DNA of 64,000 nt from Stagnihabitans lacustris (GTDB lineage: Bacteria > Pseudomonadota > Alphaproteobacteria > Rhodobacterales > Rhodobacteraceae), in assembly GCF_025950525.1 (NCBI RefSeq), contig NZ_JAPDGS010000001.1, positions 434,001 to 498,000 of the forward strand, given 5' to 3'. The position numbers and the translations under genes are program-made. The notes under the pieces are model-generated. The model saw only the letters and a program-made list of their open reading frames with translations. It ran no database searches and had not been told where the DNA came from. This document shows positions 6,344 to 60,108 of this stretch, in pieces (position 1 is the first letter of the stretch; every line of letters starts with the position of its first letter).

Positions 6344-6400
6344 TTCAAGGGGCCCACGGGCCCCTTGAAAATCCCCGTGGATATTTGGGAAAAGATGAAA
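6344..6400 (+). repeat. Dispersed intergenic element, copy A
   Basis: The hairpin is TTCAAGGGGCCC-AC-GGGCCCCTTGAA (6344-6369). The conserved core CCCCGTGGATATTTGGG and tail AAAAGATGAAA (6373-6400) follow. The last base is the first base of the LysR gene start codon, so the element's GGGAAAAG supplies the ribosome site. Confidence 0.75.
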
Positions 6401-7293
6401 TGGATTGGGACGATCTGCGGGTCTTTCTGGCTGTCGCGCGGGCGGAAAGCCTGTCGGGGGCGGGGCGGCGGTTGAAGGTCGATCCGGCCACGGTCGGGCG
6501 GCGCGTCGTGCGGCTGGAAGAGGACCTCGGGCGGCGTTTGTTCGTCAAGTCGCCCCAGGGTTACGGGCTGACCGAAGAGGGCGCGCGGCTTTTGCCCCAT
6601 GCCGAGCGGGCAGAGGCGGCTTTCGATGGCGCGACCGAGGCTTTGCGGGGGCCGGAGGGGCTGACGGGGCAGATCCGGCTTGGCGCGCCGGATGGCTGCG
6701 CGAATTACCTTCTGCCGCAAGTGATTGCGCGGATCTGTGACGCCAATCCCGGGCTGGAGGTGCAGTTGGTGGCCCTGCCGCGGGTCTTCAACCTGTCCAA
6801 GCGCGAGGCGGATATGGCTGTGGCGGTCTCGCGTCCCGAGGCGGGGCGGCTGACCGTGCAGAAGTTGACCGATTACCGGCTGCATCTGGCGGCCAGTCGG
6901 GACTATCTGGCGGGACATGCGCCGATCCTTGCGCGTGAGGACCTGAAGGACCACCGTTTTGTCGGCTATATCCCCGACATGATCTTTGACAAGGAGCTGG
7001 ATTACCTGGCCGAAATCGGCGTGCCGCCGCCGCCCTTGGCCTCGAATTCGGTGTCGGTGCAGCTGAATTTTCTGCGTCAGGGGGCGGGGCTTGGGGTGGT
7101 GCATGACTTCGCGCTTCCCGCTGCGCCCGAGCTGGTGCGGGTCCTGCCCGAAGTGATCAGCCTGAAGCGCGCCTTTTGGCTGATCCGCCATGCCGATGAT
7201 GGGCGGGTTGCGCGGCTCAACCGTTTTGCGGCGCTGCTGACCTCGGGGGCGCGGGCCGAGATGGCACGGCTGGAAGGGTGTGGCGCAGAATAA
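6400..7293 (+). CDS. LysR-family transcriptional regulator
   Basis: A 297-residue regulator with an N-terminal winged helix (MDWDDLRVFLAVARAESLSGAGRRL, residues 1-60 overall) and the canonical VGRRVVRLEEDLGRRLF recognition segment. A LysR substrate-binding domain follows (from about residue 90; TGQIRLGAPDGCANYLLP). The assigned start ATG at 6400 gives the usual LysR N-terminus. The longer open frame upstream runs through the repeat element and is rejected. It is divergent from mmsA, so control of mmsA or of its own promoter is the simplest guess. The effector is unknown. The short DNA-binding form MDWDDLRVFL is common among Rhodobacterales paralogues. Confidence 0.87.
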   Translation: MDWDDLRVFLAVARAESLSGAGRRLKVDPATVGRRVVRLEEDLGRRLFVKSPQGYGLTEEGARLLPHAERAEAAFDGATEALRGPEGLTGQIRLGAPDGCANYLLPQVIARICDANPGLEVQLVALPRVFNLSKREADMAVAVSRPEAGRLTVQKLTDYRLHLAASRDYLAGHAPILAREDLKDHRFVGYIPDMIFDKELDYLAEIGVPPPPLASNSVSVQLNFLRQGAGLGVVHDFALPAAPELVRVLPEVISLKRAFWLIRHADDGRVARLNRFAALLTSGARAEMARLEGCGAE

Positions 7294-7368
7294 AGTTGCG
7301 TTGAAATTTTACGGATTGACGGAATCTTGCGTGAGGCGCAGCCTGAACGGATTGGAAGGGAGGTGTCC

Positions 7369-7803
7369 ATGCTTGTCAGTCATATCCTGAAATCGAAATC
7401 CGACGATGGGGTCGTCACTTTGGCGCCAGGGTCGACCGTGGCTCAGGCGGCCGAAACGCTATCGGCGCGGCGCATCGGGGCCATCATCGTGTCACGTGAC
7501 GGGCGCGAGGTGGCGGGGATCGTGTCAGAGCGCGATGTGGTGCGCGAAATCGGGCGGCGCGGCGCGGCCTGCCTGGCCGACCGGGTGGAAAGCCTGATGA
7601 CGGCGCAGGTGACGACTTGCACCCGCTCGGATACGGCGGACCGGGTGCTGGAGTTGATGACCCAGGGCCGTTTTCGCCATATTCCTGTGGTCGAGGCCGG
7701 GCAGATGGTCGGCCTGATTTCGATTGGCGATGTGGTCAAGGCGCGGCTGGCCGATCTGCAACATGAAAAGGACGCTTTGGAGGGCATGATCCGGGGCGCA
7801 TGA
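7369..7803 (+). CDS. Tandem CBS-domain protein
   Basis: The product is 144 residues made of two CBS motifs (about residues 8-60 and 75-132): GSTVAQAAETLSARRIGAIIV followed by SERDVVREIG, then CTRSDTADRVLELMTQGRFRHIPVV followed by ISIGDVVKARL. A CBS pair usually binds adenosyl nucleotides and acts as an energy or redox sensor. With no attached effector domain it probably modulates a partner protein. ATG 7369 is chosen because GGAAGGGAGG lies just upstream. The C-terminus (MIRGA) is encoded by the first unit of a 14-bp tandem repeat that continues past the stop, so its reading could vary if the repeat slips. Confidence 0.88.
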   Translation: MLVSHILKSKSDDGVVTLAPGSTVAQAAETLSARRIGAIIVSRDGREVAGIVSERDVVREIGRRGAACLADRVESLMTAQVTTCTRSDTADRVLELMTQGRFRHIPVVEAGQMVGLISIGDVVKARLADLQHEKDALEGMIRGA

Positions 7804-7841
7804 TCGGGGGTGCTTGATCGGGGGTGCTTGATCGGGGGCGC
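7786..7841 (+). repeat. Four tandem 14-bp units
   Basis: The units are ATGATCCGGGGCGC (7786-7799), ATGATCGGGGGTGC (7800-7813), TTGATCGGGGGTGC (7814-7827) and TTGATCGGGGGCGC (7828-7841). The array straddles the stop codon of the CBS gene and lies 65 bp before coaD. A 14-bp period is not a multiple of three, so gain or loss of units upstream of the stop would change the C-terminus. Confidence 0.9.
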
Positions 7842-7905
7842 AGAATTGCCCCTTGCGCTTGGGGCCGCTTTCCGCTGCACTGCGGAAAAAATGCGGAGGG
7901 CGTTG

Positions 7906-8406
7906 ATGCGCATCGGTCTTTATCCTGGCACGTTCGACCCGATCACGCTGGGCCATATCGACATCATCCAGCGGGCCATGGCTTTGGTGGACCGCTTGGT
8001 GATCGGCGTGGCGATCAACCGTGACAAGGCGCCGCTCTTCGGGCTGGAAGAGCGCGTCGCCATGGTCGAGGAGGAATGCCGCGAAATCTCGGCCCGGGTG
8101 GGGGGCGAAATCGTCGTTCACCCCTTTGAAAACCTCTTGATCGACTGCGCCCGCGATGTGGGGGCGGGGATCATCATCCGCGGCCTGCGGGCGGTGGCGG
8201 ATTTCGAATATGAGTTCCAGATGGTCGGCATGAACCGGGCGATGGATGCCTCGGTCGAGACGGTTTTCCTGATGGCCGACGCGCGACGTCAGGCGATCGC
8301 GTCGAAATTGGTCAAGGAAATCTGTCGGTTGAACGGGGATGTGTCGAAATTCGTCACCCCCGCCGTCGATGCAGCCCTGGTGCGGCGTTTGCGTCGGGCG
8401 AAATAG
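7906..8406 (+). CDS. coaD: Pantetheine-phosphate adenylyltransferase
   Basis: CoaD transfers AMP from ATP to 4'-phosphopantetheine, the penultimate step of coenzyme A synthesis, in the cytoplasm. The 166-residue length is standard. Motifs are the nucleotidyltransferase loop GTFDPITLGHIDI (residues 8-20), IIRGLRAVADFEYEFQM for the phosphopantetheine site, and a C-terminal ASKLVKEICRLNGDVSKFV. This last segment replaces the more usual ISSTxVKEI and keeps the lysine. GGAGGG lies 6 bases before the ATG. It follows the CBS gene by about 100 bp. Confidence 0.96.
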   Translation: MRIGLYPGTFDPITLGHIDIIQRAMALVDRLVIGVAINRDKAPLFGLEERVAMVEEECREISARVGGEIVVHPFENLLIDCARDVGAGIIIRGLRAVADFEYEFQMVGMNRAMDASVETVFLMADARRQAIASKLVKEICRLNGDVSKFVTPAVDAALVRRLRRAK

Positions 8407-8442
8407 CGCGCATTTTAGACATTAGGCGGGCGTCAACACCCT

Positions 8443-8454
8443 TGGTCTAGACCA
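8443..8454. promoter_or_regulatory. 12-bp palindrome at the ribosome site
   Basis: TGGTCTAGACCA is a perfect palindrome ending six bases before the ATG of the next gene and touching its AGAGGG ribosome site. It could be an operator or a small translation-blocking stem. There is no independent support. Confidence 0.35.
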
Positions 8455-8459
8455 GAGGG

Positions 8460-8825
8460 ATGAAACAGCGCATCGCACAGATTCTGCCGATCTTTGCCGT
8501 CTTCTTCGTCAGCTTCGTGGCTTTGGCGGCCACGATGGGCGTGGCGGCCCTGGCTCATGCCGGTTCGACCCGCGTGGCCCTGATCGCCTCGTCTGACGGG
8601 TGGAAGCGGGTCGAAAGCTCTGGTCTGCCGATCGTCCGCCTGGCGCTTGGGGGGCTGTTGATTGTCGTCGATGGCGCGGGCGCGCCTGATGCCTTGGCTC
8701 GATTGCGGGCCGGTTCCCTGTTTATGTTGGACGCAAGCCTGATTCCGGGCTGCGAAGTTCCGGGCTCCGTGACGACGGAAAAGGTGCCGGATGAAACTGC
8801 GCCTGTTGAAAAGGTTCGCTCATGA
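8460..8825 (+). CDS. Small membrane-anchored protein of unknown function
   Basis: I do not recognise this 121-residue product. It starts with a long hydrophobic helix (residues 8-33, ILPIFAVFFVSFVALAATMG), either an uncleaved anchor or a signal peptide cut after AHA. The remainder is about 85 residues with a second weakly hydrophobic stretch (LALGGLLIVVDGAG), one cysteine (PGCEVPG) and a charged end. Its stop overlaps the start of the chemoreceptor gene (ATGA at 8822), so the two are translationally coupled. It may be an accessory subunit of that receptor, but this rests only on position. Confidence 0.7.
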   Translation: MKQRIAQILPIFAVFFVSFVALAATMGVAALAHAGSTRVALIASSDGWKRVESSGLPIVRLALGGLLIVVDGAGAPDALARLRAGSLFMLDASLIPGCEVPGSVTTEKVPDETAPVEKVRS

Positions 8826-10357
8826 CTTTGACGCTTGAAACCCTGCGAAGCCGTGTCGCCCGTGGCTTGGGATGGCTGATGTGGCTGCATGTGCCGCTTG
8901 TGGCGGTTCTGGCTTGGGTTCTGGGGGACGGGGTCGTGGTTCCGGTCGCCGCGACCTTTGTGCTGACCGCCCTGGTCGAGCTTTTGGCCGTCCGCCGTCC
9001 TCATGCCGCGACCAGTCACCTGATCTTCGCGGTGGTCTATGGGGCGCAGGTGGCGATCCTGGTGGGCCTGATGCAGGGGCATCCCTGGCAGGCCGACATG
9101 CACATGTATTTCTTTGCGGCCCTGGCCATCCTGGGCGCGCTGTGCAGTTGGCCTGCGATCGTGGCCTATGTCGCGTTCGTTGCCGTCCATCACCTGGCGC
9201 TGAACTATCTCATGACCGAACTGGTCTTTGTCGGGCCAGCCGATTTCGGTCGCGTTGTGATGCATGCGGTGATTCTCTTGTCCGAGGGGATTGCCCTGGG
9301 CGTCCTGACTTATGTCCTGGCCTCGATCTTCACGGTCCAGGCCCAGGTCCTTGCCGCGGCAGAGGCCGCGCGCAGCACGGCCGAGGGCTTTTTGGTCAGC
9401 CGTTCGGCCGAACAAACGGCGCAGTCCCAGGCCGTGTCTCGGTTGATCGAAAGCATCACCGATCTGGCCGCGGGCGACTACGGACACGAGATTGCGAGCG
9501 ACAGTTTCCCGCAAGAGTATCAATCGGTTGGCCATGCCTTGAACCTTTTGAGCCGCCGGTTGAGCCTGGCTGTGACCACGGTGGCCCAGGCCGCGCGGGG
9601 GGTGCAGGTCTCGGGCGGGTCGCTGTTGTCCACGGCGGGGGCGCTGGAAAGCTCGGCGGCAGAGCAGGTCGCCTTGCTGGGCCGGGCGCGCAGCGGCTTC
9701 ACCGGGCTCAGCCAAAGTCTGGGGGCCACGATCACGCTGGCCTCGCAAGCCGATGACGCCATGCAGGAAAACCGGATGGAGGTCGAACGCGGGACCGAGC
9801 TTTTGTCCCAGGTGGTCGAGGCCATGGGCCTGATCCAGCAGTCCACGGGGCAGATCCGGCAAATCGTCGAAGTCATGGACAACATCGCCTTCCAGACCAA
9901 CCTTCTTGCCCTGAACGCCGGGGTCGAGGCCGCACGGGCGGGCGACACCGGTCGCGGCTTTGCGGTCGTGGCCTCCGAAGTGCGGGCGCTGGCACAGCGC
10001 GCTGCCGAATCGGCGCGCGAAATCCGTGGGTTGATTGACCAGGGCCAGGGCAATGTCGAAATGGGCACCCGCAAGGTCGACATGACGACAGAGGCTTTGC
10101 AAAGCCTGATCACCAGCGCACAGCGCGCTGCGGGATTTGTCACCGACATCACCGACAGCATCCGGCAACAGGGGCAGGGACTGCAGGGCCTTCAGGAAGA
10201 GGTCAGTTCGCTGGACACTCAGGCGCGCCACAATGCCAATCTCGCCTCACGGATTTCGGCGGCGGGCGACGAATTGCAGACCCATTCCAGCGCCATGGCC
10301 AAGGGTATGGCCGAGTTGGAGGGCAAGGGCGGGCGAAACCTGCGGAATGTTGCATAA
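8822..10357 (+). CDS. Methyl-accepting chemotaxis protein with multi-pass membrane sensor
   Basis: A 511-residue chemoreceptor. The C-terminal signalling domain has the hairpin tip IAFQTNLLALNAGVEAARAG and GRGFAVVASEVRALAQR (about residues 350-400), which contacts CheA/CheW. The N-terminal 180 residues hold about five or six closely spaced transmembrane helices with little periplasmic sequence, so it senses within the membrane or reports on membrane state. Conserved-looking histidines sit in MHMYFF (H94) and VHHLAL (H123, H124) and could bind a metal or cofactor. A HAMP-like linker (about 200-250) follows. No che genes lie nearby, so it feeds a distant array. It is coupled to the small membrane protein upstream. 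Confidence 0.93.
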   Translation: MTLTLETLRSRVARGLGWLMWLHVPLVAVLAWVLGDGVVVPVAATFVLTALVELLAVRRPHAATSHLIFAVVYGAQVAILVGLMQGHPWQADMHMYFFAALAILGALCSWPAIVAYVAFVAVHHLALNYLMTELVFVGPADFGRVVMHAVILLSEGIALGVLTYVLASIFTVQAQVLAAAEAARSTAEGFLVSRSAEQTAQSQAVSRLIESITDLAAGDYGHEIASDSFPQEYQSVGHALNLLSRRLSLAVTTVAQAARGVQVSGGSLLSTAGALESSAAEQVALLGRARSGFTGLSQSLGATITLASQADDAMQENRMEVERGTELLSQVVEAMGLIQQSTGQIRQIVEVMDNIAFQTNLLALNAGVEAARAGDTGRGFAVVASEVRALAQRAAESAREIRGLIDQGQGNVEMGTRKVDMTTEALQSLITSAQRAAGFVTDITDSIRQQGQGLQGLQEEVSSLDTQARHNANLASRISAAGDELQTHSSAMAKGMAELEGKGGRNLRNVA

Positions 10358-10556
10358 GCGCAGGGGAATGGGCGTGTGTTCCTAACCCGCACCCCATAAT
10401 ATTGGAAAAAGACAAGCCAGCCTGTCCACTGTCGCCCCCTCCAGATGCTTGGGCGCACGGAAACGGCGCCTCAGGCGGTGATATCCCGCCCGATGCCCGG
10501 TTGCAGAAGGGGGCCCCTTCGTGCCATGCAAGGCCATTCATGCGCAGGGATCGCCG

Positions 10557-11564
10557 ATGGTCACGCTCAAACAGATCGCCAATGCCGTGGGCGTCAGTCA
10601 GGCGACCGTTTCGCGGGTGCTGAACTTCGACCAGACGCTGTCGGTCTCGCCGCAGACCCGCCAGTCGATCATCGAAACGGCCGAGGCGATGAACTACGCC
10701 ACGCCCCGCGCCCGCCAACGCGCCAAGGCCACCGAGGCTGCGCCCAAGATCGCGTTGATGCATTTCCTGCGTCCCGATCAGGAATTGGCCGACCCCTATT
10801 ACGTCGGCCTCCGCCTCGGGATCGAGACCCGCGCCGCCGCCCTGAAGCTTGAGACTGTCAAGATCTACCATGCCGACAGCCTGCCGGAGCCCAAGATCTT
10901 CGACCAGACGTCGGGGTTGATCTGCATCGGCCTGCATGACGCGGCAGAGCTTGATTGGCTCAAGACCCATGCCCATCATGTGGTCTGTGCCGATTTCGCC
11001 CCCGAGGATGACGAATTGGACGCGGTCGAAAGCGATGTGACCGGCGCCATGCGCAAACTGTTGAAATCGCTGATTGCCATGGGGCATCGTCGCATCGGCT
11101 TCGTCGGCTGGTGGGACCATGACCGCGCCGGCGCGATCAAGGCGCGCGAAAAGCGCTGCGCCGCTTTCATCGACTGGATGACCGCGGCCGGGCTTTATGA
11201 CCCCGACATTTGCCTGACCGACTGGAACACCGAGGCTTCGGGCTATCGCCTGACCCAGACCGTCCTGGCCCGCCCCGACCGGCCCGGCGCTTTGGTCTGC
11301 GGCAATGACAATATGGCGGTGGGCGCCTACCGCGCCATTCACGAGATGGGGTTGAAGATCCCCGGCGACATCGCCGTCGTGTCCTTCAACGACATTTCGG
11401 TCGCGCAATTCATGAACCCGCCGCTGTCGACCATGCGCCTGCCCTCCGAGGAAATCGGCGAAACCGCCGTTGACCTTTTGATGGAGCGAATCCAGGGCCG
11501 CACCACGCCCAAGCGCACGATACTCGCCCCCAAGATGATCTGGCGCCGCAGCGCCAAGCTGTAA
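10557..11564 (+). CDS. LacI-family transcriptional regulator
   Basis: A 335-residue LacI/GalR regulator. The N-terminal helix-turn-helix is VTLKQIANAVGVSQATVSRVLN, with hinge residues up to about 60. The periplasmic-binding-like effector domain contains GHRRIGFVGWWDH and NDNMAVGAYRAIHEMGLKIPGDIAVVSFND. Similarity is to the EbgR branch, which responds to galactosides. ATG 10557 is the start giving the canonical MVTLKQIA N-terminus. It is followed by a sugar ABC operon with a GH2 glycosidase, the likely target. A 13-bp palindrome lies between this gene and the binding-protein gene. Confidence 0.92.
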   Translation: MVTLKQIANAVGVSQATVSRVLNFDQTLSVSPQTRQSIIETAEAMNYATPRARQRAKATEAAPKIALMHFLRPDQELADPYYVGLRLGIETRAAALKLETVKIYHADSLPEPKIFDQTSGLICIGLHDAAELDWLKTHAHHVVCADFAPEDDELDAVESDVTGAMRKLLKSLIAMGHRRIGFVGWWDHDRAGAIKAREKRCAAFIDWMTAAGLYDPDICLTDWNTEASGYRLTQTVLARPDRPGALVCGNDNMAVGAYRAIHEMGLKIPGDIAVVSFNDISVAQFMNPPLSTMRLPSEEIGETAVDLLMERIQGRTTPKRTILAPKMIWRRSAKL

Positions 11565-11606
11565 ATGTCGTTTTCCGGCCGAAACTTGCCGCAACGCAGC
11601 GGAAAA

Positions 11607-11619
11607 TTTTTACTAAAAA
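11607..11619. promoter_or_regulatory. Candidate operator upstream of the sugar-uptake operon
   Basis: TTTTTACTAAAAA is a perfect odd-centred palindrome in an otherwise GC-rich region. Just after it lie TTGCCA (11621-11626) and TAGCCT (11644-11649), separated by 17 bp. It is well placed for the adjacent LacI-type regulator, but its AT-only arms without a central CG are atypical for that family. Confidence 0.35.
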
Positions 11620-11695
11620 CTTGCCAGACGATTTTACCTGCGCTAGCCTGATCGAACAGCGGGGGAGGAGCCCCGCGATTTGGGAGGAGCCAAAG

Positions 11696-12958
11696 ATGAA
11701 AATGACCGCCTTCAAGGGCGTGCTGGCTGTCGCCGGCATCCAGCTGATCACCGCCACCATGGCGCTGGCCACTGACATCACCGTCTGGTGCTGGGCGCCC
11801 GAGTTCAACGGCGCCGCGATGAACGAGGCGATTGCCCGTTACACCGCCGCCAACCCCGACACCAAGATCACCGTCGTCGATTTCGCCAAGGGCGACCTGG
11901 AAACCAAGCTGCAGACGCAGTTGGCTTCGGGCACCACCGAGGGCCTGCCGGACATCGTTCTGATCGAAGACTACGGCGCACAAAAGTATCTGCTGTCCTT
12001 CCCCGGCGCCTTCGAGCCGCTGACCGACAAGATCGACTACAGCCAGTTCGCCAAATACAAGGTCGAACTTGCCACCGTCGAAGGTCAGACCTATTCGCTG
12101 CCCTTCGATTCGGGCGTGACGGGCCTGTTCTACCGCTCGGACCTGCTGGAGCAGGCGGGCTACAAGGCCGATGCCCTGAAGGACATCACCTGGGAAGAGC
12201 TGTCGGCCATTGGCGACAAGGTCAAGGAAGTCACCGGCAAGCCGCTGTTGTCGGTGGACATGAATGACGCTGGCGCGATCCGCATCATGCTGCAATCGGC
12301 CGGTTCGTGGTATTTCAACGCCGATGGCACCGCCAACATCAAGGACAATCCGGTCTTCAAGGCAGCCTTGACCTCTTGGGTCGGCATGTTGAAGAACCAG
12401 AACCTGTATAAGTCGGTCTCGGGCTGGGGCGACTATACCGGCGCCTTCAACAACGGCGACGTGGCGGGCGTCTTCACCGGCGTGTGGATGACCGGCGGCA
12501 TCAAGGGCAACAACATGTCCGGCAAATGGGCCGTGGCGCCCATTCCGAAGCTGGCGGGCGTCGAAGGTGCGGGCCATGCCTCGAACCTGGGCGGGTCGTC
12601 CTGGTATGTGCTGTCCTCGGCGCCGTCCAAGGATGCGGCCATCGACTTCCTGCAGAAGGTCTGGGCCTCTGACGTGGACTTCTATCAGAAGATCCTGGTC
12701 GGCCAGGGCGCCTTTGCCGCCTATCTGCCCGCCCGCGACGGCGAGGCCTATTCGGCGGCCGACGCGTATTTCGGCGGCCAGTCGGTCTGGAAGGACTTCT
12801 CGGATTGGCAAGCGGCCATCCCGGGCGTCAACTACGGCATCTTCACCAACGAGGCTGACGCCGCCGTGACCGCCCAACTGCCGGGCCTGATCGACGGTGG
12901 CGACATCGACGCCGCAATCGAAGCGATCGACGCGCAAATCGCGCAGCAGATCCAGTAA
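11696..12958 (+). CDS. Sugar ABC transporter, substrate-binding protein
   Basis: The 420-residue product has an N-terminal signal peptide (cleavage near TMALA, residue 25) and then the family-1 extracellular solute-binding fold (DITVWCWAPEFNGAAMNEAIARY). It delivers a sugar or oligosaccharide to the permeases encoded next. The start is fixed by GGGAGGAG just upstream of ATG 11696. It is the first structural gene of the operon. A 117-bp spacer with C/G-rich inverted segments follows, a usual place for a stem that raises binding-protein mRNA levels over the permeases. The attached glycosidase suggests a galactoside or similar ligand, but this is inference. Confidence 0.93.
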   Translation: MKMTAFKGVLAVAGIQLITATMALATDITVWCWAPEFNGAAMNEAIARYTAANPDTKITVVDFAKGDLETKLQTQLASGTTEGLPDIVLIEDYGAQKYLLSFPGAFEPLTDKIDYSQFAKYKVELATVEGQTYSLPFDSGVTGLFYRSDLLEQAGYKADALKDITWEELSAIGDKVKEVTGKPLLSVDMNDAGAIRIMLQSAGSWYFNADGTANIKDNPVFKAALTSWVGMLKNQNLYKSVSGWGDYTGAFNNGDVAGVFTGVWMTGGIKGNNMSGKWAVAPIPKLAGVEGAGHASNLGGSSWYVLSSAPSKDAAIDFLQKVWASDVDFYQKILVGQGAFAAYLPARDGEAYSAADAYFGGQSVWKDFSDWQAAIPGVNYGIFTNEADAAVTAQLPGLIDGGDIDAAIEAIDAQIAQQIQ

Positions 12959-13075
12959 ACTCCTCCCGGAGTGGGCCTTTCCGGCAGCAATGTCGGGGGG
13001 GCCTTTCCGTCCGCGGGAGCGCCGATCTTTTCATGACCCCGCATCAAGACGGGGCCTCGTCACACAGGGGGAGCC

Positions 13076-14766: not shown

Positions 14767-14774
14767 GGCCTGAC

Positions 14775-16946: not shown

Positions 16947-16949
16947 GAC

Positions 16950-18014: not shown

Positions 18015-18019
18015 TTTGG

Positions 18020-18071
18020 CTTTCATACTGACCCAAATATCTCGCGGGGGTGCGGGGGGCGCGCCCCCCGC
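18020..18071 (-). repeat. Dispersed intergenic element, copy B
   Basis: Core CTTTCATACTGACCCAAATA begins at 18020, is followed by TCTCGCGGGGG, and then by the 20-bp perfect palindrome GCGGGGGGCGCGCCCCCCGC (18052-18071). Orientation is opposite to copy A. It lies 6 bp after the ATPase stop. Confidence 0.8.
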
Positions 18072-18145
18072 TCTTCCCTTACCCCAAGCGGCACCCTATA
18101 CGGAAAAAGCGGGATACCCCCGCGGCCCCTATTGAAAGCCGCCCC

Positions 18146-19303: not shown

Positions 19304-19333
19304 GCGGTCAGGGGTCTTGCCAGGCCAGGTGAA

Positions 19334-19368: not shown

Positions 19369-19424
19369 CTATGGGGATTGCGGGCGCAGACTGTCCGCTG
19401 ATTTGCCAGATATGGAGCCTTGCG

Positions 19425-20804: not shown

Positions 20805-20809
20805 ACGCG

Positions 20810-20864
20810 CCGGGGGTTTCACACCCCCGGACCCCCGTGGGAATATTTATGAAAAGATGAAAGG
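20810..20864 (+). repeat. Dispersed intergenic element, copy C
   Basis: Hairpin CCGGGGGT-TTCAC-ACCCCCGG (20810-20830) is followed by ACCCCCGTGGGAATATTTAT and GAAAAGATGAAAG (to 20864). It sits 6 bp after the tpa stop, inside the tpa-tauR gap, where the hairpin could attenuate read-through into tauR. Confidence 0.82.
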
Positions 20865-26130: not shown

Positions 26131-26190
26131 CCTTTCACATTGATACAAATATTCCACGGGAGGGTCCGGGAGGGTGTGAAACCCTCCCGG
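26131..26190 (-). repeat. Dispersed intergenic element, copy D
   Basis: Core CCTTTCACATTGATACAAAT, then ATTCCACGGG (26131-26160), then hairpin CCGGGAGGGT-GTGAA-ACCCTCCCGG (26166-26190). On the complementary strand the loop reads TTCAC, as in copies C and J. It lies 30 bp after ackA. Confidence 0.82.
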
Positions 26191-33101: not shown

Positions 33102-33160
33102 CTGGTTTTCCAAGGGCAGTCTATGGGGCAAACGGCAGAGCAGGGGGCTCCTCCCCCCAC

Positions 33161-33190
33161 CCCCCGGGGATATTTGTGCACGTTGAAAGG
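33161..33190 (+). repeat. Dispersed intergenic element, copy E
   Basis: CCCCCCGGGGATATTTGTGC followed by ACGTTGAAAGG. A C/G-rich segment upstream (33141-33160) can fold but is less regular than in other copies. Confidence 0.7.
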
Positions 33191-33288: not shown

Positions 33289-33347
33289 CTTTCATACTGA
33301 CCCAAATACTCACGGGGAGGTCTGGAGGGGCCCGTGGGTCCCTCCAG
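33289..33347 (-). repeat. Dispersed intergenic element, copy F
   Basis: CTTTCATACTGACCCAAATA, then CTCACGGGGAGG, then stem CTGGAGGG (33322-33329) with CCCTCCAG (33340-33347). It faces copy E as an inverted pair. Its core differs from copy B at only a few bases. Confidence 0.8.
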
Positions 33348-33448: not shown

Positions 33449-34837
33449 TTGAGCGGCATCGGCGATCTGGCGGGAGGTTTTCTGCGCGGCCTGGGCGGGC
33501 TTGCCTTGCCCGACCCCGTGGTGCGGCTGGGGGTCACGGGGCTGTCGCGCGCGGGCAAGACGGTCTTCATCACATCCTTGGTGGCCAACCTGCTGGAGCG
33601 TGGGCGGATGGGGCAGTTTCGGCCCGGCGCCCGGATCGACTCGGTCCTCTTGCAGCCGCAGCCTGACATGACCTTGCCGCGCTTTGCCCAGGAAGACCAC
33701 CTGGCTGCCCTGACCGGTGATACGCCGCATTGGCCCGACAGCACCCGGGCGGTGTCCGAACTGCGCCTGTCGTTCCGTTATAGGCCCGAGGGGATGGCTT
33801 CGGTCCTTGGCGCCAGGACCCTGCATCTGGATATCGTGGATTATCCCGGCGAATGGCTGTTGGACCTGGCCCTTCTGGGCAAGAGCTATGAGGACTGGGC
33901 CGAGGCCACTTTGTCGCGCATCGCCGGCCGCGAGGAGGCGCGCGATTACCTGGCGCTGGCCCGGGCCGAGGATGGCGCGCTGGACCTGGACGAGCCGCGC
34001 GCCATGGCCTTGGCTGCCAGCTTCACCGATTACCTGCAAGCGGCGCGGCGGGCGGGTTGGTCCGATTGCACGCCGGGGCGGTTTCTTTTGCCGGGCGATC
34101 TGGCGGGCTCTCCGGTGCTGACCTTTGCGCCCTTGCCGCGGCCGGCCATGGCGGGGCGGGGGTCGATGTATCAGGCGATGGAGGCGCGGTTTGCCGCCTA
34201 TCAGGCCAAGGTCGTGCGGCCGTTTTTCCAGACCCATTTCGCAAAGCTGGACCGACAGGTGGTCTTGATCGACCTGTTGGGCGCGCTGGACCGTGGCCCC
34301 CGCGCGGTCGAAGACCTGCGCCGCACCCTGGCCGAGGTTCTGGGCGCCTTTCGCCCCGGGCGGCGCGGTTGGCTGGACCTGCTGATGGGCGCCAAACGGG
34401 TCGACCGCATCCTGTTTGCCGCCACCAAGGCCGATCACCTGCACCATTCCCAGCACGCCCGGATGACCGCGATCACCGAGGCCCTGTTGGCCGATGCCCG
34501 CGCCCGGGCCGATTATGCCGGGGCGGGGACAGCGGCCATGGCGCTGGCCTCGTATCGCGCCACGGTCGAAGAAGAGATCTCCCGCGGCGGCACCACGCTG
34601 CCCGCGGTCAAGGGGCGCTTGGGCGATGGGCGCATGGTGGCGGCCTATGCCGGGGAATTGCCCGAGGACCCCGCCCGCATCCTGTCGCCCGCCCGTCAGG
34701 GGGCGCAGGGCTGGATGGGGGCGGACTACCAAGCGATGGACTTTCAGCCCCTGCGCATGACGCGCCACCCCGGCGAGGGGCCGGCCCATATCCGCCTGGA
34801 CCGGGCGGCTGATTTTCTGATCGGAGACCTGATGTGA
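33449..34837 (+). CDS. YcjX-family P-loop GTPase-like protein
   Basis: The 462-residue protein belongs to the YcjX (DUF463) family, stress-linked GTP-binding proteins of unclear role. The P-loop is VTGLSRAGKTVFITSLVANLL near residue 35 (motif GxxxxGKT), with DIVDYPGEWLLDL as the switch-like aspartate segment and TKADHLHHSQH near the base-specificity position. There is no suitable ATG; I propose TTG 33449 because GGAAGGG lies 8 bases upstream and it gives a family-like N-terminus (xSGIGDLAGGFLRGLGGLALPDP). The far upstream ATG at 33176 would run through two repeat elements. It is coupled to a GNAT gene (GTGA overlap) and a YcjF-like gene. Confidence 0.9.
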   Translation: MSGIGDLAGGFLRGLGGLALPDPVVRLGVTGLSRAGKTVFITSLVANLLERGRMGQFRPGARIDSVLLQPQPDMTLPRFAQEDHLAALTGDTPHWPDSTRAVSELRLSFRYRPEGMASVLGARTLHLDIVDYPGEWLLDLALLGKSYEDWAEATLSRIAGREEARDYLALARAEDGALDLDEPRAMALAASFTDYLQAARRAGWSDCTPGRFLLPGDLAGSPVLTFAPLPRPAMAGRGSMYQAMEARFAAYQAKVVRPFFQTHFAKLDRQVVLIDLLGALDRGPRAVEDLRRTLAEVLGAFRPGRRGWLDLLMGAKRVDRILFAATKADHLHHSQHARMTAITEALLADARARADYAGAGTAAMALASYRATVEEEISRGGTTLPAVKGRLGDGRMVAAYAGELPEDPARILSPARQGAQGWMGADYQAMDFQPLRMTRHPGEGPAHIRLDRAADFLIGDLM

Positions 34838-36218: not shown

Positions 36219-36580
36219 ACCGTCGTCGCATCAGGCCCGGACCATGGCCCTGCCGACTGGGAGACGGTCTGCGGAGGACGGGTCTTCGTGGGCCCAAGGT
36301 TCGTGGGCCCAAGGTTCGGGGGCGGGTCTGCCGGAACGGGTCTTCGGGGACGGGTCTTTGGCGTCAAAGCCTATTGCGGCCACGTTTTCGGCGGCCAAGT
36401 TTTCCGGGGCAAAGCCTTTGGGGGCCGGGTCAATCGCGGCTTCGGACCCTGTGGTGGGCGCTTGGCCAGTCGGCCCCAATCGCGGCCCCTGTCCAAATGC
36501 CCATCCTGCCTCTGGGTCCCGCGCTGCGTGGCAATGCGCAGGGCTCTGGTCCCGCTGTGTAGCGCGGGGTCTCCCCCGGG
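36219..36580. repeat. Repetitive 362-bp intergenic block, no supported gene
   Basis: The block contains direct repeats: TTCGTGGGCCCAAGG at 36285-36299 and 36300-36314, ACGGGTCTTCG at 36278 and 36336 with ACGGGTCTTTG at 36350, and GCGGCCA-CGTTTTC / GCGGCCA-AGTTTTC near 36376-36410. Open frames exist on both strands (for example plus 36244-36591, Ala/Gly/Ser-rich; minus 36231-36479 containing WAHEPWAHE). None has a ribosome site, and none looks like a known protein. It may be degraded coding sequence or a locally duplicated spacer. Confidence 0.65.
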
Positions 36581-37938: not shown

Positions 37939-38051
37939 AGTATTCTCCTAATGTAAGTCCGCCATCCTCCAAGGGTGCATGGCGCGACGAAGGGGGCCGA
38001 TAGCGTGATTCCGCCTGAAAGGGAAGGGGGAATCGCCGGGGCTGGCCCTGA

Positions 38052-38108
38052 GGGGGGCGCTGCCCCCCGCCTGCGGCCCCCCCGGAGATATTTGGGTCAG
38101 TATGAAAG
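38052..38108 (+). repeat. Dispersed intergenic element, copy G
   Basis: Stem GGGGGGC-GCT-GCCCCCC (38052-38068), then CCCCCCCGGAGATATTTGGG and TCAGTATGAAAG (38077-38108). The tail is the exact complement of the start of copy B (CTTTCATACTGACCCAAATA-like). Confidence 0.8.
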
Positions 38109-38146: not shown

Positions 38147-38176
38147 CTTTCATACTGGCCCAAATATTCCCGCCGG
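38147..38176 (-). repeat. Dispersed intergenic element, copy H
   Basis: CTTTCATACTGGCCCAAATA followed by TTCCCGCCGG. Its expected hairpin arm is degenerate. It forms an inverted pair with copy G. Confidence 0.75.
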
Positions 38177-38338
38177 AGGCATCGCCCGAGCCGGTTGGGG
38201 CGCAAGCCCCAGAGGCGAGAGAAAATCTTGCGCCGTCAGGCGCTCAATTTGGTGTGCGGGGGCTGCGGGAGGCTTCCGGGCTTGCTTGAGTTTCGCCGCC
38301 CGCCCCCTTACACAGGGGGAAAGGTGAAGAGGACCCAA

Positions 38339-46562: not shown

Positions 46563-46600
46563 GACAGCGTTTACAGCTTTATTTTTGAATGTTAGCCTTC

Positions 46601-46616: not shown

Positions 46617-46661
46617 CGCCCGACCGGGCAGGCAAAGCCCCGCGGGTCCAACCGGGAGACG

Positions 46662-51468: not shown

Positions 51469-51525
51469 CGCTTGCATCGCGGGGCTGCGCGTCTTAGGTG
51501 GGGATAAAGCTTTCCCGAGGGTGAC

Positions 51526-54002: not shown

Positions 54003-54067
54003 ATCCCGCCGTTTTTCCGCCGTCTTTGCATGAGACATTCCCCCGACACAACGCGGGGGCGTGGGCC

Positions 54068-54697: not shown

Positions 54698-54706
54698 CGG
54701 ACAGCG

Positions 54707-54764
54707 CTGGAGGAGGCTCTGCCCCCTCCAGACCTCCCCCGGAATATTTGAGCCAATGTGAAAG
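54707..54764 (+). repeat. Dispersed intergenic element, copy I
   Basis: Stem CTGGAGG (54707-54713) / CCTCCAG (54725-54731), then CTCCCCCGGAATATTTGAGC and CAATGTGAAAG (to 54764). It lies just after the unknown membrane protein gene and its tail merges into the 18-bp array. Confidence 0.8.
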
Positions 54765-54842
54765 AGGCGGGCGCGCGCAAAGAGGCGGGCGCGCGCAAAG
54801 AGGCGGGCGCGCGCAAAGAGGCGGGCGCGCGCAAAGAGGCGG
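54761..54842 (+). repeat. 18-bp tandem array (four units plus a partial fifth)
   Basis: AAAGAGGCGGGCGCGCGC is repeated exactly at 54761, 54779, 54797 and 54815, with a truncated fifth unit from 54833. The first unit begins inside the tail of element copy I. The array ends 6 bp before the metZ -35 box. Confidence 0.95.
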
Positions 54843-54847
54843 GGCGC

Positions 54848-54876
54848 TTGACCCTTGGCGGGGGGGCTGGTAATCC
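54848..54876 (+). promoter_or_regulatory. metZ promoter
   Basis: TTGACC (54848-54853) and TAATCC (54871-54876) are separated by 17 bp, a good sigma70-type pair. They place the transcript start near 54883, which is precisely where the SAM-II aptamer begins. Confidence 0.75.
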
Positions 54877-54880
54877 CTGT

Positions 54881-54933
54881 CCGTGGCGCTTTGAACCGGA
54901 TTGCGGGCCACGTTAAACATTCCGCTAAAAGGT
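54881..54933 (+). ncRNA. SAM-II riboswitch
   Basis: The sequence fits the SAM-II (metA) aptamer of alphaproteobacteria. P1 is CGTGGC (54882-54887) with GCCACG (54907-54912). The loop carries GCTTTGAACCGGATTGC, and the 3' strand has the hallmarks CACGTTAAACA and CCGCTAAAAGG that form the pseudoknot. Excess S-adenosylmethionine binding should reduce metZ expression. Downstream stems GGGGC/GCCCC (54934-54948) and CCGGG/CCCGG (54954-54966) may belong to the expression platform before the AAGGAGGA ribosome site (54993-55000). Confidence 0.92.
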
Positions 54934-55004
54934 GGGGCTGATGGCCCCTCTCTCCGGGCAACCCGGGTCCCCGTTGCAAGACGGCGGCCCATAAGGAGGA
55001 CCGG

Positions 55005-56183
55005 ATGAGCGAGTGGAACATCCGCACGAAACTGGTGCATGAAGGCAGCCGTCGCAGCCAATATGGCGAGATGGCCGAGGCGCTGTATCTGACGCAGGGC
55101 TTTGCCTATCCCGACGCCGAGTCGGCCGAACAGCGGTTCATCAAGGCGGGCGATGACGAGTTCATCTATGCCCGCTATGGCAACCCCACGACCCGCATGT
55201 TCGAAGAGCGCATCGCGGCGCTGGAGGGGACCGAGGACGCCTTTGCCACCGCGTCGGGGATGGCGGCGGTCAATGGCGCCTTGGTGTCCATGCTGCGGGC
55301 GGGGGATCATGTGGTGTCCTCGCGGGCGCTGTTCGGGTCCTGTCTGTATATCCTGGAAGAGGTCCTGACGCGCTATGGCGTCAAAGTGACGTTCGTCGAT
55401 GGGGCGGATCTGGATCAATGGCGGGCGGCGGTCGTGCCGGGGGTCAAGGCGGTCTTTTTCGAGTCGATGTCGAATCCGACTTTGGAGCTGGTGGATATTG
55501 CTGCGGTGTCACAGATTGCCCATGCGGTCGGCGCCTTGGTCATCGTGGACAATGTCTTTGCCACGCCGATCTTTTCGCGGGCGGTGGAACAGGGCGCCGA
55601 TGTGGTGATCTATTCCTCGACCAAGCATATCGACGGGCAGGGCAAGGCCCTGGGCGGGGTGATCTGCGGCACGAAGGATTTCGTGCGCAAGGTGGCGGAA
55701 CCCTATCTGAAACACACCGGGGCGGCGATTTCGCCGTTTAACGCCTGGCTGCATCTGCAAGGCATGGTGACGCTGGACCTGCGCTGTCGGGCCATGGCCG
55801 ATGCCGCCTTGCGGGTGGCCACGGCTTTGGAGGCCGAGGCCAAGGTGACGCGGGTGATCTATCCGGGGCTCGCCAGCCATCCGCAGCATGATCTGGCCAT
55901 GGCGCAGATGGGGACGGGGGGCACTTTGGTGACCTTTGAAGTCGCAGGCGGCAAGGAAGGCGCCTTCCGCTTCATGAACGCGCTGGAAATCGCCAAGATT
56001 TCCAACAACCTGGGCGATGCCAAGTCGATCGCCACCCATCCGGCGACCACGACCCACCAGCGTTTGCCGCAGGATCAGAAGGACAAGCTGGGCATCACGC
56101 CGGGCCTGATCCGGTTCTCGGTCGGGCTGGAGGATGCGGGCGACCTGATCGCCGATCTGCGGCGCGGTCTGGCTGCGATCTGA
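55005..56183 (+). CDS. metZ: O-succinylhomoserine sulfhydrylase
   Basis: MetZ makes homocysteine from an activated homoserine and sulfide in methionine synthesis. It is a 392-residue Cys/Met-metabolism PLP enzyme. K207 in IYSSTKHIDGQGKALGG holds PLP, with RYGNPTTRMFEERIAALEG and ATASGMAAV binding the phosphate. The GQGKALGGVICG form after the lysine favours MetZ over cystathionine enzymes; O-acetylhomoserine use cannot be excluded. The start has AAGGAGGA five bases upstream. The SAM-II switch just upstream corroborates the methionine role. Confidence 0.95.
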   Translation: MSEWNIRTKLVHEGSRRSQYGEMAEALYLTQGFAYPDAESAEQRFIKAGDDEFIYARYGNPTTRMFEERIAALEGTEDAFATASGMAAVNGALVSMLRAGDHVVSSRALFGSCLYILEEVLTRYGVKVTFVDGADLDQWRAAVVPGVKAVFFESMSNPTLELVDIAAVSQIAHAVGALVIVDNVFATPIFSRAVEQGADVVIYSSTKHIDGQGKALGGVICGTKDFVRKVAEPYLKHTGAAISPFNAWLHLQGMVTLDLRCRAMADAALRVATALEAEAKVTRVIYPGLASHPQHDLAMAQMGTGGTLVTFEVAGGKEGAFRFMNALEIAKISNNLGDAKSIATHPATTTHQRLPQDQKDKLGITPGLIRFSVGLEDAGDLIADLRRGLAAI

Positions 56184-56363
56184 CAGGGGGGGGCCAGTCC
56201 TGCGGGGCCAGTCCTGCGGGGCCGGCCCTTTACCTTTCCTTCACCGCGACCCGAATGAATTTGATCCAATGTCGCCTTTCCATCGTAAGACTTCGGTAAG
56301 ACTTGGGATCGGAGGTCCGATGCCCTATATTGCCTTCTTGCGACCTGATCAGGGGAAGCCGCC

Positions 56364-57446
<1,083 letters not shown>

Positions 57447-57463
57447 GACGCTTGTTGAAAGCG

Positions 57464-57521
57464 CCGGGGAGGTTTCACACCTCCCCGGACCCCTCCGTGG
57501 GATATTTTTGAAAAGATGAAA
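57464..57521 (+). repeat. Dispersed intergenic element, copy J
   Basis: Hairpin CCGGGGAGGT-TTCAC-ACCTCCCCGG (57464-57488), then ACCCCTCCGTGGGATATTTT and TGAAAAGATGAAA (to 57521). It is the cleanest full-length copy. The tail continues TGAAAGAGGCG, as in copy I. Confidence 0.85.
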
Positions 57522-57527
57522 TGAAAG

Positions 57528-57560
57528 AGGCGCGCCAGGGGAGACCGGGCGCGCCTTTTT
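57528..57560 (+). terminator. Rho-independent terminator after folE2
   Basis: AGGCGCGCC (57528-57536) pairs with GGCGCGCCT (57548-57556) and runs into TTTTT. It follows element copy J and separates folE2 from convergent glmM. Confidence 0.82.
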
Positions 57561-57591
57561 CGATGATGTGCTTTGGTTCCGCCGCTGGCGC

Positions 57592-58932
57592 CTAGCGGGT
57601 GGCCTTTTCCACGGCAAAGACGATTTCGTCGACGACTTCGGCCAAAAGCCCCGGGTCCTCACATTCGGCCATCACGCGGATCAGGGGTTCGGTGCCGCTC
57701 TTGCGGATCAAGAGGCGGCCCTTGCCGGTCAGGCGACGTTCCGAGGCCGCAATCGTGGCCTTGACCGTGTCATGGTCCAGGGGGCGCTGGCCATCGGCAT
57801 AGCGGACGTTTTTCAACAGTTGCGGGACCGTGTCGAACTGGCGGATCAGGCGCGAGGCCTTTTCGCCGGTGCGCACCATCTCGGCCAGGAAATGCAGGCC
57901 GGCCAGCAGGCCATCGCCGGTCGTGGCATAGTCGGTCATCACGATATGGCCCGATTGCTCACCGCCCAGGTTCCAGCCGCCGCGGCGCATCGCCTCGACC
58001 ACATAGCGGTCGCCCACAGCCGTGCGTTCCAGGTGCAGGCCCTTGGCCGTCAAAAAGCGTTCCAGCCCCAGGTTCGACATGACGGTGGCCACCAGCGTAT
58101 CGCCTTGCAGCCGGCCTTCGCTGGCCCAGCGTGCCGCCAGCAGGGCCATGACCTGATCGCCATCGGCCACGGTCCCGGCCTCGTCCAGGATCATCACCCG
58201 GTCGGCATCGCCGTCCAAGGATATGCCCAGATGCGCGCCATGGGCCACCACCGCCTCGGCGGCGGTCTGCGGATGGGTGGAGCCGACGTTTTCGTTGATA
58301 TTGGTGCCGTTCGGGCTGACGCCCACCGGAATCACGGTCGCGCCCAGCTCCCACAGAACTTCCGGGGCCGCCTTGTAGGCCGCGCCATTGGCACAGTCGA
58401 TCACGACCTTCAGGCCTTCAAGGGTCAGGCCCGAAGGAAAGGTCGTCTTGACGAATTCCTGATAGCGACCGCGGCCATCCTCGATCCGCCGCGCGCGGCC
58501 AATATCCTCGGGCAGGACGGGGGGGATATCGGCGGCCACAAGGGCCTCGATCTCGGCCTCGGCCTCATCGGACAGTTTGAACCCGTCAGGCCCAAAGAAC
58601 TTGATGCCGTTGTCCTGATGCGGGTTGTGCGAGGCGCTGATCATCACGCCGAGGTCCGCCCGCATCGACCGCGTCAGATACCCCACCGCGGGCGTCGGCA
58701 CCGGACCCAGAAGCAGCACGTTCATGCCGGTCGAGGTCAGGCCGGCCGTCATGGCATTCTCCAGCATGTAACCGGAAAGCCGCGTGTCCTTGCCGATCAC
58801 AACCCGATGCGCCCCCGAGCCGCGCTTGAAATAGCGCCCGGCGGCGGCCCCCAGCTTCAAGGCCATCTCGGCCGTCATCGGATAGGTGTTCGCCCGCCCG
58901 CGCACGCCATCGGTGCCAAACAACTTCCTCAT
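57592..58932 (-). CDS. glmM: Phosphoglucosamine mutase
   Basis: GlmM converts glucosamine-6-phosphate to glucosamine-1-phosphate for peptidoglycan and lipopolysaccharide precursors. The 446-residue length is standard. The phosphoserine loop is [13 protein letters not shown], the metal loop [11 protein letters not shown], the sugar loop GGEQSGHIV and the phosphate loop [12 protein letters not shown]. Its ATG overlaps the folP stop (ATGA), the classical folP-glmM pair. Confidence 0.97.
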
Positions 58933-59945
58933 GCGCTAACCCCTTGCACCGCTTCCCACAATTTCAACGCCTGCCGCGTCTCGGACCCGTCATGGACACG
59001 GATCATCTGCATCCCCTGGGCCGCGCCCCAAAGCGCCACCGCCAAGGACCCCGGCATCCGCTTGGCCGCATCGGCCTCGGCGCCAATCGTCCCGATAAAC
59101 CGCTTGCGCGAGGCGCCGAGCAGCACCGGCAGCCCCAGGTCGTGAAACACCGACAGGCCGCGCAGCAGCGTCAAGTTGTGCTCCAGCGTCTTGCCAAAGC
59201 CGATGCCGGGGTCAATGGCGATACGGTCACGGGAAATCCCCGCGGCCTCGGCCACAGCCACCCGCTCGGCCAGGGCATCATAGACGTCCAACAGCACATC
59301 GTCATACCGCGGATCATCCTGCATGGTCTGCGGATCGGCCACCGAATGCATCAGCACGACCGGACAGCCCGCCTGTGCCACGACCGCCGCCATCCCCGGG
59401 TCAAACCGCAAGGCCGTCACGTCATTGACCCAGGACGCCCCCGCGGCCAAAGCTGCCTCCGCCACCGCGGCCTTCCGTGTGTCGATCGAGATCGGCGCCT
59501 CCAGCCCGCCCGCCCGCAAGGCGGCAATCACCGGCGCGGTCCGGGCGATCTCTTCGGCCACCGCCACCTCGACCGCCCCGGGCCGCGTGCTTTCGCCGCC
59601 GATGTCCAGGATGTCGACGGCGCCCGCCATGATCCGCGCCTGACCCACCGCCGCTTCGGGCCGCAAAAACAGCCCACCATCCGAGAAACTGTCGGGCGTG
59701 ACGTTCAAGATCCCCATGAGCCGCGTGCGCCCCATGTCCAGCCCGCCAAACCCCCCGCGCGGGCCCGAGAGCCTGTCGCGCACCTCGCCCGAAAGCTCCG
59801 AAGCCGCCACGATGCGGCCGCCCTCCCGGGTCAGAACCTCGACTTGGGCGAACCATTGGGTCCCGCCCGCCAGAGGCAAAGCCCCCGACACCCGTTCCGC
59901 CATCGCAATGGGTCGATAATACGCGCGCAAGCTTGGCCCTTTCAT
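58929..59945 (-). CDS. folP: Dihydropteroate synthase
   Basis: FolP condenses p-aminobenzoate with dihydropterin pyrophosphate and is the sulfonamide target. The barrel motifs are [46 protein letters not shown] and [11 protein letters not shown]. The N-terminus is unusually long (residues 1-72, [20 protein letters not shown]), a form usual in this order. The ATG at 59945 lies in the tail of repeat copy K (ATGAAAGGG). A TTG at 59927, 7 bases after AAAGGG, is an equally good start and would give 332 rather than 338 residues. It is followed by glmM. Confidence 0.95.
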
Positions 59946-59966
59946 ACTGGCTTAAATACTCCACAT
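59939..59966 (-). repeat. Dispersed intergenic element, copy K
   Basis: CTTTCATACTGGCTTAAATA followed by CTCCACATG. On the minus strand its end is ATGAAAG, which is the annotated folP start. A CCGGGAGGGTGTGAAACC-like hairpin remnant lies at about 60012-60036. Confidence 0.75.
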
Positions 59967-60007
59967 GCGCCTTCGGTTTCGCCATTGGTCCGAGCAACCG
60001 AAGGCGC
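59967..60007. repeat. 12-bp inverted repeat between folP and folB
   Basis: GCGCCTTCGGTT (59967-59978) is exactly complementary to AACCGAAGGCGC (59996-60007). It sits inside copy K, between its core and hairpin remnant. It may be an insertion or a processing stem in the folB-folP transcript. Confidence 0.7.
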
Positions 60008-60108
60008 GGCGGTCCGGGAGGGTGTGAAACCTTCCCTGCGTTCCGCAAGTGCCAAGACAGGGATTAGGCCGCAGCCCAAGCCCAAACAAGCCCCCATCCG
60101 CCCCAGGC

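What the first reader, a model, noticed from the sequence alone, without database searches (positions are those of the whole stretch)
6344..60036. A dispersed hairpin-plus-ATATTT element, at least eleven copies in one window
Eleven intergenic sites share one design: a GC hairpin, then CCGTGG, ATATTT, and a tail ending in ATGAAAG (or its complement CTTTCAT-ACTG-CCCAAATA). Positions: 6344, 18020, 20810, 26131, 33161, 33289, 38052, 38147, 54707, 57464 and 59939. Copies C, D and J share nearly the same hairpin and loop (TTCAC). Copies lie in both orientations, never inside genes, about one per 6 kb. Length (about 55-60 bp) and structure fit a REP-like or MITE-like family, but I cannot name it. Several copies follow stop codons and could also act as terminators or mRNA-stabilising stems.
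Basis: partly seen in the sequence, partly recalled or inferred. Interest (0 to 1): 0.75.

Follow-up and report, generated by a model that had tools for sequence, protein, structure and literature searches.

The report
Dispersed hairpin repeats with species-specific tails
Hundreds of copies of a short DNA element, usually a hairpin followed by a shared "tail", sit between the genes of this bacterium and its relatives; copies stay at the same places in a sister species, yet related bacteria use different versions of the tail, as if something in each cell reads it.

Summary
All 11 sites share one core, and every ATATTT in the window lies in one. A profile finds 62 copies in 464 kb of this genome against one in reversed sequence. 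Design: usually a GC hairpin (41 of 62 have a strong one close by), GGRTATTT, two to three spacer bases, then a tail ending (A)TGAAAG.

First, tails differ between genomes of the family ("dialects"). In six other genomes the listed copies have variable spacer bases beside a nearly fixed tail; this genome is mixed, with three main tail classes. Second, copies keep place and orientation in a sister species (12 of 13 intergenic regions), while a copy's tail is no more like its ortholog than like a random copy. Beyond the sister species, conservation is mixed.

The element is not itself an ordinary terminator: no orientation bias, five of 11 copies between divergent genes, and T-run terminators often follow separately. 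It fails two REP tests: no Y1 transposase over cut-off in 16 genus genomes, no GTAG/GTGG tag. Close copies face tails inward 26 to 1.

Best reading: a REP-like, vertically inherited intergenic site read by an unknown partner. The mechanism is inferred (0.4).

The parts
6344..6401 (+). copy A: hairpin with CACG loop, CCGTGGATATTT, tail GAAAAGATGAAA; between divergent genes, ends beside the start of a LysR-type gene
18020..18071 (-). copy B: hairpin, GAGATATTT, tail GTCAGTATGAAAG; just after the stop of the upstream plus-strand gene, pointing against it; present in G002
20810..20863 (+). copy C: TTCAC-loop hairpin, GGAATATTT, tail GAAAAGATGAAAG; same place in G002, G004 and G009 with other tails
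26132..26190 (-). copy D: TTCAC-loop hairpin, tail ATCAATGTGAAAG; convergent region
33143..33190 (+). copy E: weak hairpin (score 15), GGGGATATTT, diverged tail; divergent region beside truA; shared with five other genomes of the genus
33289..33347 (-). copy F: CACG-loop hairpin, GTATTT, tail GTCAGTATGAAAG; faces copy E tail to tail
38053..38108 (+). copy G: two small hairpins, GGAGATATTT, tail GTCAGTATGAAAG; divergent region between rplY and a cysteine synthase gene
38147..38252 (-). copy H: long-headed form (about 70 bases of head repeated elsewhere in the genus), tail GCCAGTATGAAAG; faces copy G tail to tail; head limits from BLAST
54707..54764 (+). copy I: hairpin, GGAATATTT, tail GCCAATGTGAAAG; follows a stop codon on the same strand
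57464..57522 (+). copy J: TTCAC-loop hairpin, tail GAAAAGATGAAAT; convergent region; a hairpin with a TTTTT run follows
59939..60017 (-). copy K: GTATTT, tail GCCAGTATGAAAG; 12-bp stem with a loop too long for my hairpin scan, further hairpin upstream
   Evidence: sequence printed in 83

Best explanation
These are copies of an old, mostly vertically inherited intergenic element of Rhodobacteraceae, REP-like in habit but not in parts. The core is GGRTATTT, a spacer of 2-3 bases (3-4 in one genome) and a tail of about 10-13 bases that differs between genomes; a GC hairpin of variable sequence usually stands upstream. SHOWN: dialects; variable spacer beside a nearly fixed tail in the listed rows of six genomes; place and orientation kept between two species; tails exchanged at kept places; tails inward in close pairs; no orientation bias to genes. 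INFERRED: something in the cell reads the core, most simply a DNA- or RNA-binding protein; reader and sites drift together and so make dialects; sites are overwritten by other copies or selected back to the local standard; the element acts at borders of transcription units, where hairpin and bound reader mark or protect RNA ends ahead of ordinary terminators.
For: Dialects and spacer. Kept place: 12 of 13 regions shared by G000 and G002 (p = 7e-9 against random placement among 37 regions). Core kept: TATTT 54 of 55, TGAAAG 60 of 66, spacer 14 of 22 in 11 matched copies; tail 0.73 to the ortholog, 0.70 to a random copy. Scores bimodal, 54 of 62 at 32 bits or more. Tail-to-tail 26, head-to-head 1, same way 14; partners more alike than re-paired, 6 of 2000. 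Co-oriented copies sit just before T-run terminators: 11 of 32 against 2 of 30. Denser in convergent than tandem than divergent regions: 2.06, 1.06, 0.71 per kb.
Against: No reader found and none searched for by association. In this genome the spacer is not free (GG in 34 of 62) and tails are mixed: 22, 12 and 8 in three classes, 20 other. Between G000 and G002 the spacer (14 of 22) is conserved as well as the tail middle (46 of 77). Some sites are lost: at 33102 three genomes hold only degenerate copies and one shows none; at 37939 six of eight relatives have none. Weak profile scores of 4-12 are in excess (22 against 5 reversed), so some decaying copies exist. Anti-oriented and divergent copies do not fit a simple 3'-end role. 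The T-run terminator scan is noisy (784 sites, 538 in reversed sequence).
Confidence: 0.4

Rival explanations
1. A selfish REP/REPIN- or MITE-like repeat, spread in the past by a transposase that is lost or unrecognised. Dialects are lineage-specific master sequences, inward pairs are doublets, and gene conversion keeps copies alike.
For: Many intergenic copies in both orientations, fewest between divergent genes; inward doublets; lineage-specific tails; copies vary at some loci over the genus, and G002 has extra copies at 33102, 56184 and 80294.
Against: No Y1 transposase over cut-off in the genus; no tag beside the hairpin; 68 single copies show no decayed partner; 12 of 13 regions shared between two species; hairpins vary while the tail is constant; spacer varies beside a fixed tail in six genomes.
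Confidence: 0.3
2. The element is itself a transcription terminator, used in both directions, with TATTT as a weak U-tract and an alternative hairpin that can abut it.
For: Many co-oriented copies start right after a stop codon (median 53-61 bases from stop to TATTT in tandem regions of G000 and G002). The segment between stem and TATTT mirrors the stem's own 3' arm (complementarity 16.5 against 14.3, 0 of 1000 permutations, n = 37). Density is highest between convergent genes.
Against: Tandem orientation 11 with, 18 against; 12 copies between divergent genes. The main hairpin usually stands 12-14 bases away (34 of 62). T-run terminators co-occur with co-oriented copies (17 of 27 gene ends against 54 of 165). 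Only 4 of 62 elements score as T-run terminators themselves. A conserved tail past the stop point is unexplained.
Confidence: 0.12
3. A DNA-uptake-type signal: the tail is a self-recognition word for DNA import, with dialects kept up by preferential uptake.
For: Lineage dialects, inverted pairs and closeness to terminators recall neisserial uptake sequences (passages of PMC1852404); import-driven repair would keep copies intact at fixed places.
Against: Only 1 of 62 copies in a called gene, whereas the table in PMC1852404 lists 635 of 1,874 sites as intragenic in N. meningitidis. The hairpin next to most copies is unexplained. No uptake data for this organism.
Confidence: 0.1

Closest known systems
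REP / REPIN elements with RAYT (TnpA-REP) transposases
   Same: Short hairpin repeats, many intergenic copies, inverted doublets, lineage-specific sequence
   Different: No Y1 transposase over cut-off, no GTAG/GTGG tag, constant part is a tail beside the hairpin, stems free to vary, singles without remnants of a partner, shared places between species
DNA uptake sequences (DUS/USS) of Neisseria and Pasteurellaceae
   Same: Dialects between lineages, inverted pairs in intergenic regions, link with terminators (PMC1852404 passages)
   Different: Almost never in genes here, usually with its own upstream hairpin, split core with a spacer, fewer copies; uptake untested
Rho-independent terminators
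   Same: GC hairpin, then a short T-containing stretch; often just after stop codons
   Different: No orientation bias, hairpin usually 12-14 bases from TATTT, conserved tail beyond, separate T-run terminators nearby
Neisserial intergenic mosaic elements (dRS3/RS; recalled, no call)
   Same: A constant short module joined to varied modules between genes
   Different: No sequence comparison made; resemblance of layout only

Membership tests
REP / REPIN | Many dispersed intergenic copies able to form hairpins | tested here: met
   62 copies in 464 kb, 61 outside called genes; 41 with a strong hairpin close by
REP / REPIN | GTAG or GTGG tetranucleotide 0-2 nt 5' of the hairpin (definition: passage of PMC6006769) | tested here: not met
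   0 of 46 hairpins forward, 1 of 46 on the reverse strand
REP / REPIN | RAYT / Y1 transposase in the genome | tested here: not met
   0 of 16 genus genomes over the cut-off, one sub-threshold hit; search rings in 5 of 14 control genomes; own genome 93.6% complete
REP / REPIN | Inverted doublets, singlets being decayed remnants (definition: passage of PMC8049555) | tested here: inconclusive
   26 inward pairs against 1 outward, but 68 singles show no partner remnant
Intrinsic terminator | Hairpin directly followed by a T-run | tested here: not met
   4 of 62 elements score so; hairpin 12-14 bases from TATTT in 34 of 62
Intrinsic terminator | Orientation agrees with the upstream gene | tested here: not met
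   Tandem regions 11 with, 18 against; strict tails in four genomes 25 with, 26 against
MITE / non-autonomous transposon | Clean empty sites or target duplications | tested here: inconclusive
   One region with a copy in G002 only (56184), no clean boundary in the alignment; no strain-level data
DNA uptake sequence | Lineage-specific word repeated through the genome, genes included | tested here: not met
   Word and dialects present but 1 of 62 copies in a called gene
DNA uptake sequence | Raises uptake of DNA that carries it | not testable with these tools
   needs experiment
Any Rfam family | Score at or above the family's gathering threshold | tested here: not met
   Only window match is the SAM_alpha riboswitch at 54873-54948; sub-threshold matches at copies G/H are far below gathering

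The most novel reading that the evidence does not exclude
Across Rhodobacteraceae a dedicated, unidentified factor reads a split intergenic signal (GGRTATTT, spacer, tail) at hundreds of long-lived sites, and factor and sites change together, giving each lineage its own dialect: the logic of DNA-uptake dialects, but at borders of transcription units.
Probability: 0.3. Interest if true: 0.85.

Novelty: new variant of a known kind. Interest (0 to 1): 0.6.

Why it matters
Dispersed bacterial repeats are usually explained as selfish REPs or as terminators. This family has marks of a site under selection (shared places, intact cores, in several genomes a variable spacer beside a fixed tail), no recognisable REP transposase, and a sequence that shifts as dialects between related genomes. 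If a reader exists, one bacterial family offers many natural pairs of reader and site. If none exists, it is a case of concerted change among very short repeats that needs a mechanism. Hundreds of such sites in this genome carry no annotation in the Rfam search made here (one search covers the window).

Tried and rejected
Chance or composition: rejected by reversed controls. RAYT transposase: none over cut-off. Singles as decayed doublets: no partner remnant beside 68 singles. Phage or plasmid carriage: no BLAST match in the plasmid or phage collections with one 71-base copy (a short query, weak test). Nine viral contigs hold the exact pattern TATTTNNGYCAGTATGAAAG; all have 34-47% GC and none shows GGRTATTT with a GC hairpin; six matches lie in called genes, two more repeat the same gene sequence at a locus edge, one lies outside my called genes. 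Outside the family: 5 of 140 genomes had one match each with unrelated tails; the one other family member drawn, G061, had none. RNAalifold on a MAFFT alignment of 33 copies found 4 pairs and almost no covariation: stems differ in length and were misaligned, so neither for nor against. A hairpin just after the tail: mixed, 12 of 44 singles with z below -1.5. Entropies cover six genomes; G020, G138, G021, G235, G239 and others listed were left out because of varying spacer length, two tail forms or few rows, and all tables list only the first places per genome. The first count of head-to-head pairs (0 by core distance) was unfair because hairpins lie between such cores; corrected to 1 against 26.

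Literature: nine searches of an open-access library listed no paper whose title or abstract start describes this family; passages only were seen of PMC12306157, PMC1852404, PMC8632094, PMC2267715, PMC7866481, PMC6006769 and PMC8049555. That is no proof that it is undescribed.
Full report
WHAT IS THERE. The 11 sites share one core. On the sense strand: usually a GC hairpin of variable sequence; a short segment ending in forms like CCSSKGG; RTATTT; two further bases; a tail. In 464 kb (window plus 400 kb of its contig) a profile finds 62 copies against 1 in reversed sequence. Tails fall into GYCAGTATGAAA (22), GAAAAGATGAA (12), GYCAATGTGAAA (8) and other forms (20). Genome-wide, one tail class with up to 3 mismatches gives 217 matches against 1. 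Extrapolating 62 per 464 kb gives about 540 copies in 4.05 Mb (inference).

HAIRPIN. 41 of 62 copies have a hairpin of score 18 or more within 18 bases of TATTT. Scores of 20 or more occur in 39 of 62 copies against 11% of shuffles; 24 of 62 beat all 40 of their own shuffles. Loops fall in classes (TTCAC 10, CACG 9, many others) that combine with different tails. The segment between stem and TATTT (12-14 bases in 34 of 62) mirrors the stem's own 3' arm: complementarity to the own 5' arm 16.5 against 14.3 permuted, 0 of 1000, n = 37; with unique arms 15.3 against 13.8, n = 30, 0 of 1000. It may be an alternative 3' arm or a relic of duplication.

PLACE AND ORIENTATION. By my own gene caller the 62 copies divide into 21 in convergent, 29 in tandem and 12 in divergent regions, 2.06, 1.06 and 0.71 per kb. 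In tandem regions 11 point with and 18 against the upstream gene (p = 0.26). Strict tail patterns in four genomes give 25 with and 26 against (only 8 and 10 copies were placed in 400 kb each of G020 and G154). In the window five copies lie between divergent genes; NCBIfam names the flanking genes as a methylmalonate-semialdehyde dehydrogenase, a LysR-type regulator (below curated cut-offs), truA, rplY and cysteine synthase, while the gene at 33449 has no match. Close neighbours face tails inward 26 times, outward once, same way 14 times (element ends within 150 bp, G000 and G002). Partner tails are more alike than re-paired ones: 10.62 against 9.72 of 15, 6 of 2000.

NOT A TERMINATOR ITSELF. 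A lax scan for hairpin plus T-run finds such a site just past the tail in 11 of 32 co-oriented and 2 of 30 anti-oriented copies (p = 0.011). Gene ends with a co-oriented copy have one in 17 of 27 cases against 54 of 165 without (p = 0.004). The scan is noisy (784 sites, 538 in reversed sequence). So co-oriented copies tend to lie between a stop codon and an ordinary terminator.

DIALECTS. In the genus the listed tails change by species. A pattern with eight free positions matched 81 of 196 genomes of the order; 23 of them, own genome included, had 20-100 matches with controls of 0-1. The table lists interiors for only part of them: G122, G154, G181 and G223 among the 23, and some with fewer copies such as G235, G239 and G247; each of these has its own interior, G122 and G154 sharing one. 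A looser pattern matched in 11 of 14 chosen genomes; the listed ones (G016, G020, G021, G138, G223) have different tails, G020 with two forms. In the listed rows of G223, G181, G122, G154, G247 and G016 the first two to three bases after TATTT vary (mostly 1.0-2.0 bits, 0.3-0.6 for the third base in G223, G181 and G154) and the following bases are almost fixed, with G181 mixed. In the own genome the spacer is GG in 34 of 62, so it is not free here. A variable spacer beside a fixed tail is hard to get by simple copying and points to selection on what is read. Some genomes in genera that also hold carriers show nothing with these patterns; they may lack the element or use another tail. Outside the family 5 of 140 genomes had a single match with unrelated tails.

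OLD, KEPT IN PLACE, REWRITTEN. Between G000 and G002 (genes 82-85% identical in the 8.8 kb compared; median protein identity 91%) 60 neighbouring gene pairs are conserved; 37 have a region of 60 bp or more in either genome. Thirteen regions hold a copy in either genome, 12 in both (p = 7e-9); 56184 has one in G002 only. Three of the 12 differ in copy number. In the other nine, 11 copies match in orientation: TATTT identical at 54 of 55 bases, TGAAAG at 60 of 66, spacer at 14 of 22, tail middle at 46 of 77. Tail identity is 0.73 to the ortholog and 0.70 to a random copy, while sequence after the tail (0.73 against 0.54) and hairpin (0.73 against 0.61) follow orthology. So places are old and tails have been exchanged within the repertoire. 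Scores are bimodal (54 of 62 at 32 bits or more), with an excess of weak scores of 4-12 (22 against 5 reversed) that may be decayed copies.

DEEPER IN THE GENUS the picture is mixed. At 20805 all three relatives that could be compared hold a copy in place, each with another tail. At 33102, of 11 genomes including the own, six have intact copies, G015 a core without hairpin, three degenerate copies (read by eye) and G006 none that I recognise. At 37939 two of eight relatives have a copy. At 36219 the own genome and G002 have none, G001 and G007 one each.

WHAT IT IS NOT. No Y1 transposase over cut-off in 16 of 16 genus genomes (five of 14 control genomes ring). No GTAG/GTGG/CGTC tag in 45 of 46 hairpins. 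No partner remnant beside 68 singles. No Rfam family at gathering threshold in the window except a SAM riboswitch elsewhere. No convincing copy in viral contigs for the one tail tested.

MECHANISM. Shown: core, dialects, kept places in one species pair, rewriting, inward pairing. Inferred: a reader of the core, action at borders of transcription units, overwriting by other copies or selection back to the local standard. I put 0.4 on this, 0.3 on a formerly mobile REP-like repeat, 0.12 on termination by the element, 0.1 on an uptake-like signal. 'REP-like' says what it resembles; it is not filed as a REP, since two defining features were tested and not met.

LIMITS. One genome per species, so no strain-level test of movement. 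Gene calls are mine. One species pair was compared over many regions. Lists from genome searches are capped. The literature search covers open-access papers only. The nearest named relatives come from one protein: Fuscibacter oryzae and an unnamed Rhodobacteraceae bin, 94% each.

Noticed in passing
38147-38252 (minus strand); L208-L227: A long head of about 70 bases (GAGCGCC..GGCGC, TCTCGCCTCTGG, hairpin, CCAACCGGCTCGG) precedes the core in copy H and recurs in the genus: 17 of 20 BLAST-chosen stretches from ten species hold its centre. It may be a repeat or structured RNA of its own.
   Followed up: partly
54761-54847: Tandem array of an 18-base unit AAAGAGGCGGGCGCGCGC, 4.9 copies, starting at the end of copy I's tail.
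   Followed up: no
54873-54948: SAM_alpha riboswitch, 56.5 bits, upstream of the gene at 55005.
   Followed up: no
L015:2300-2610: Several TTCAC-type hairpin modules in tandem beside one copy (seen in the alignment).
   Followed up: no
36219-36580: This convergent region holds degenerate GC-rich direct repeats in G000 and G002 and is only 20-40 bp long in G004, G005, G009 and G015.
   Followed up: no
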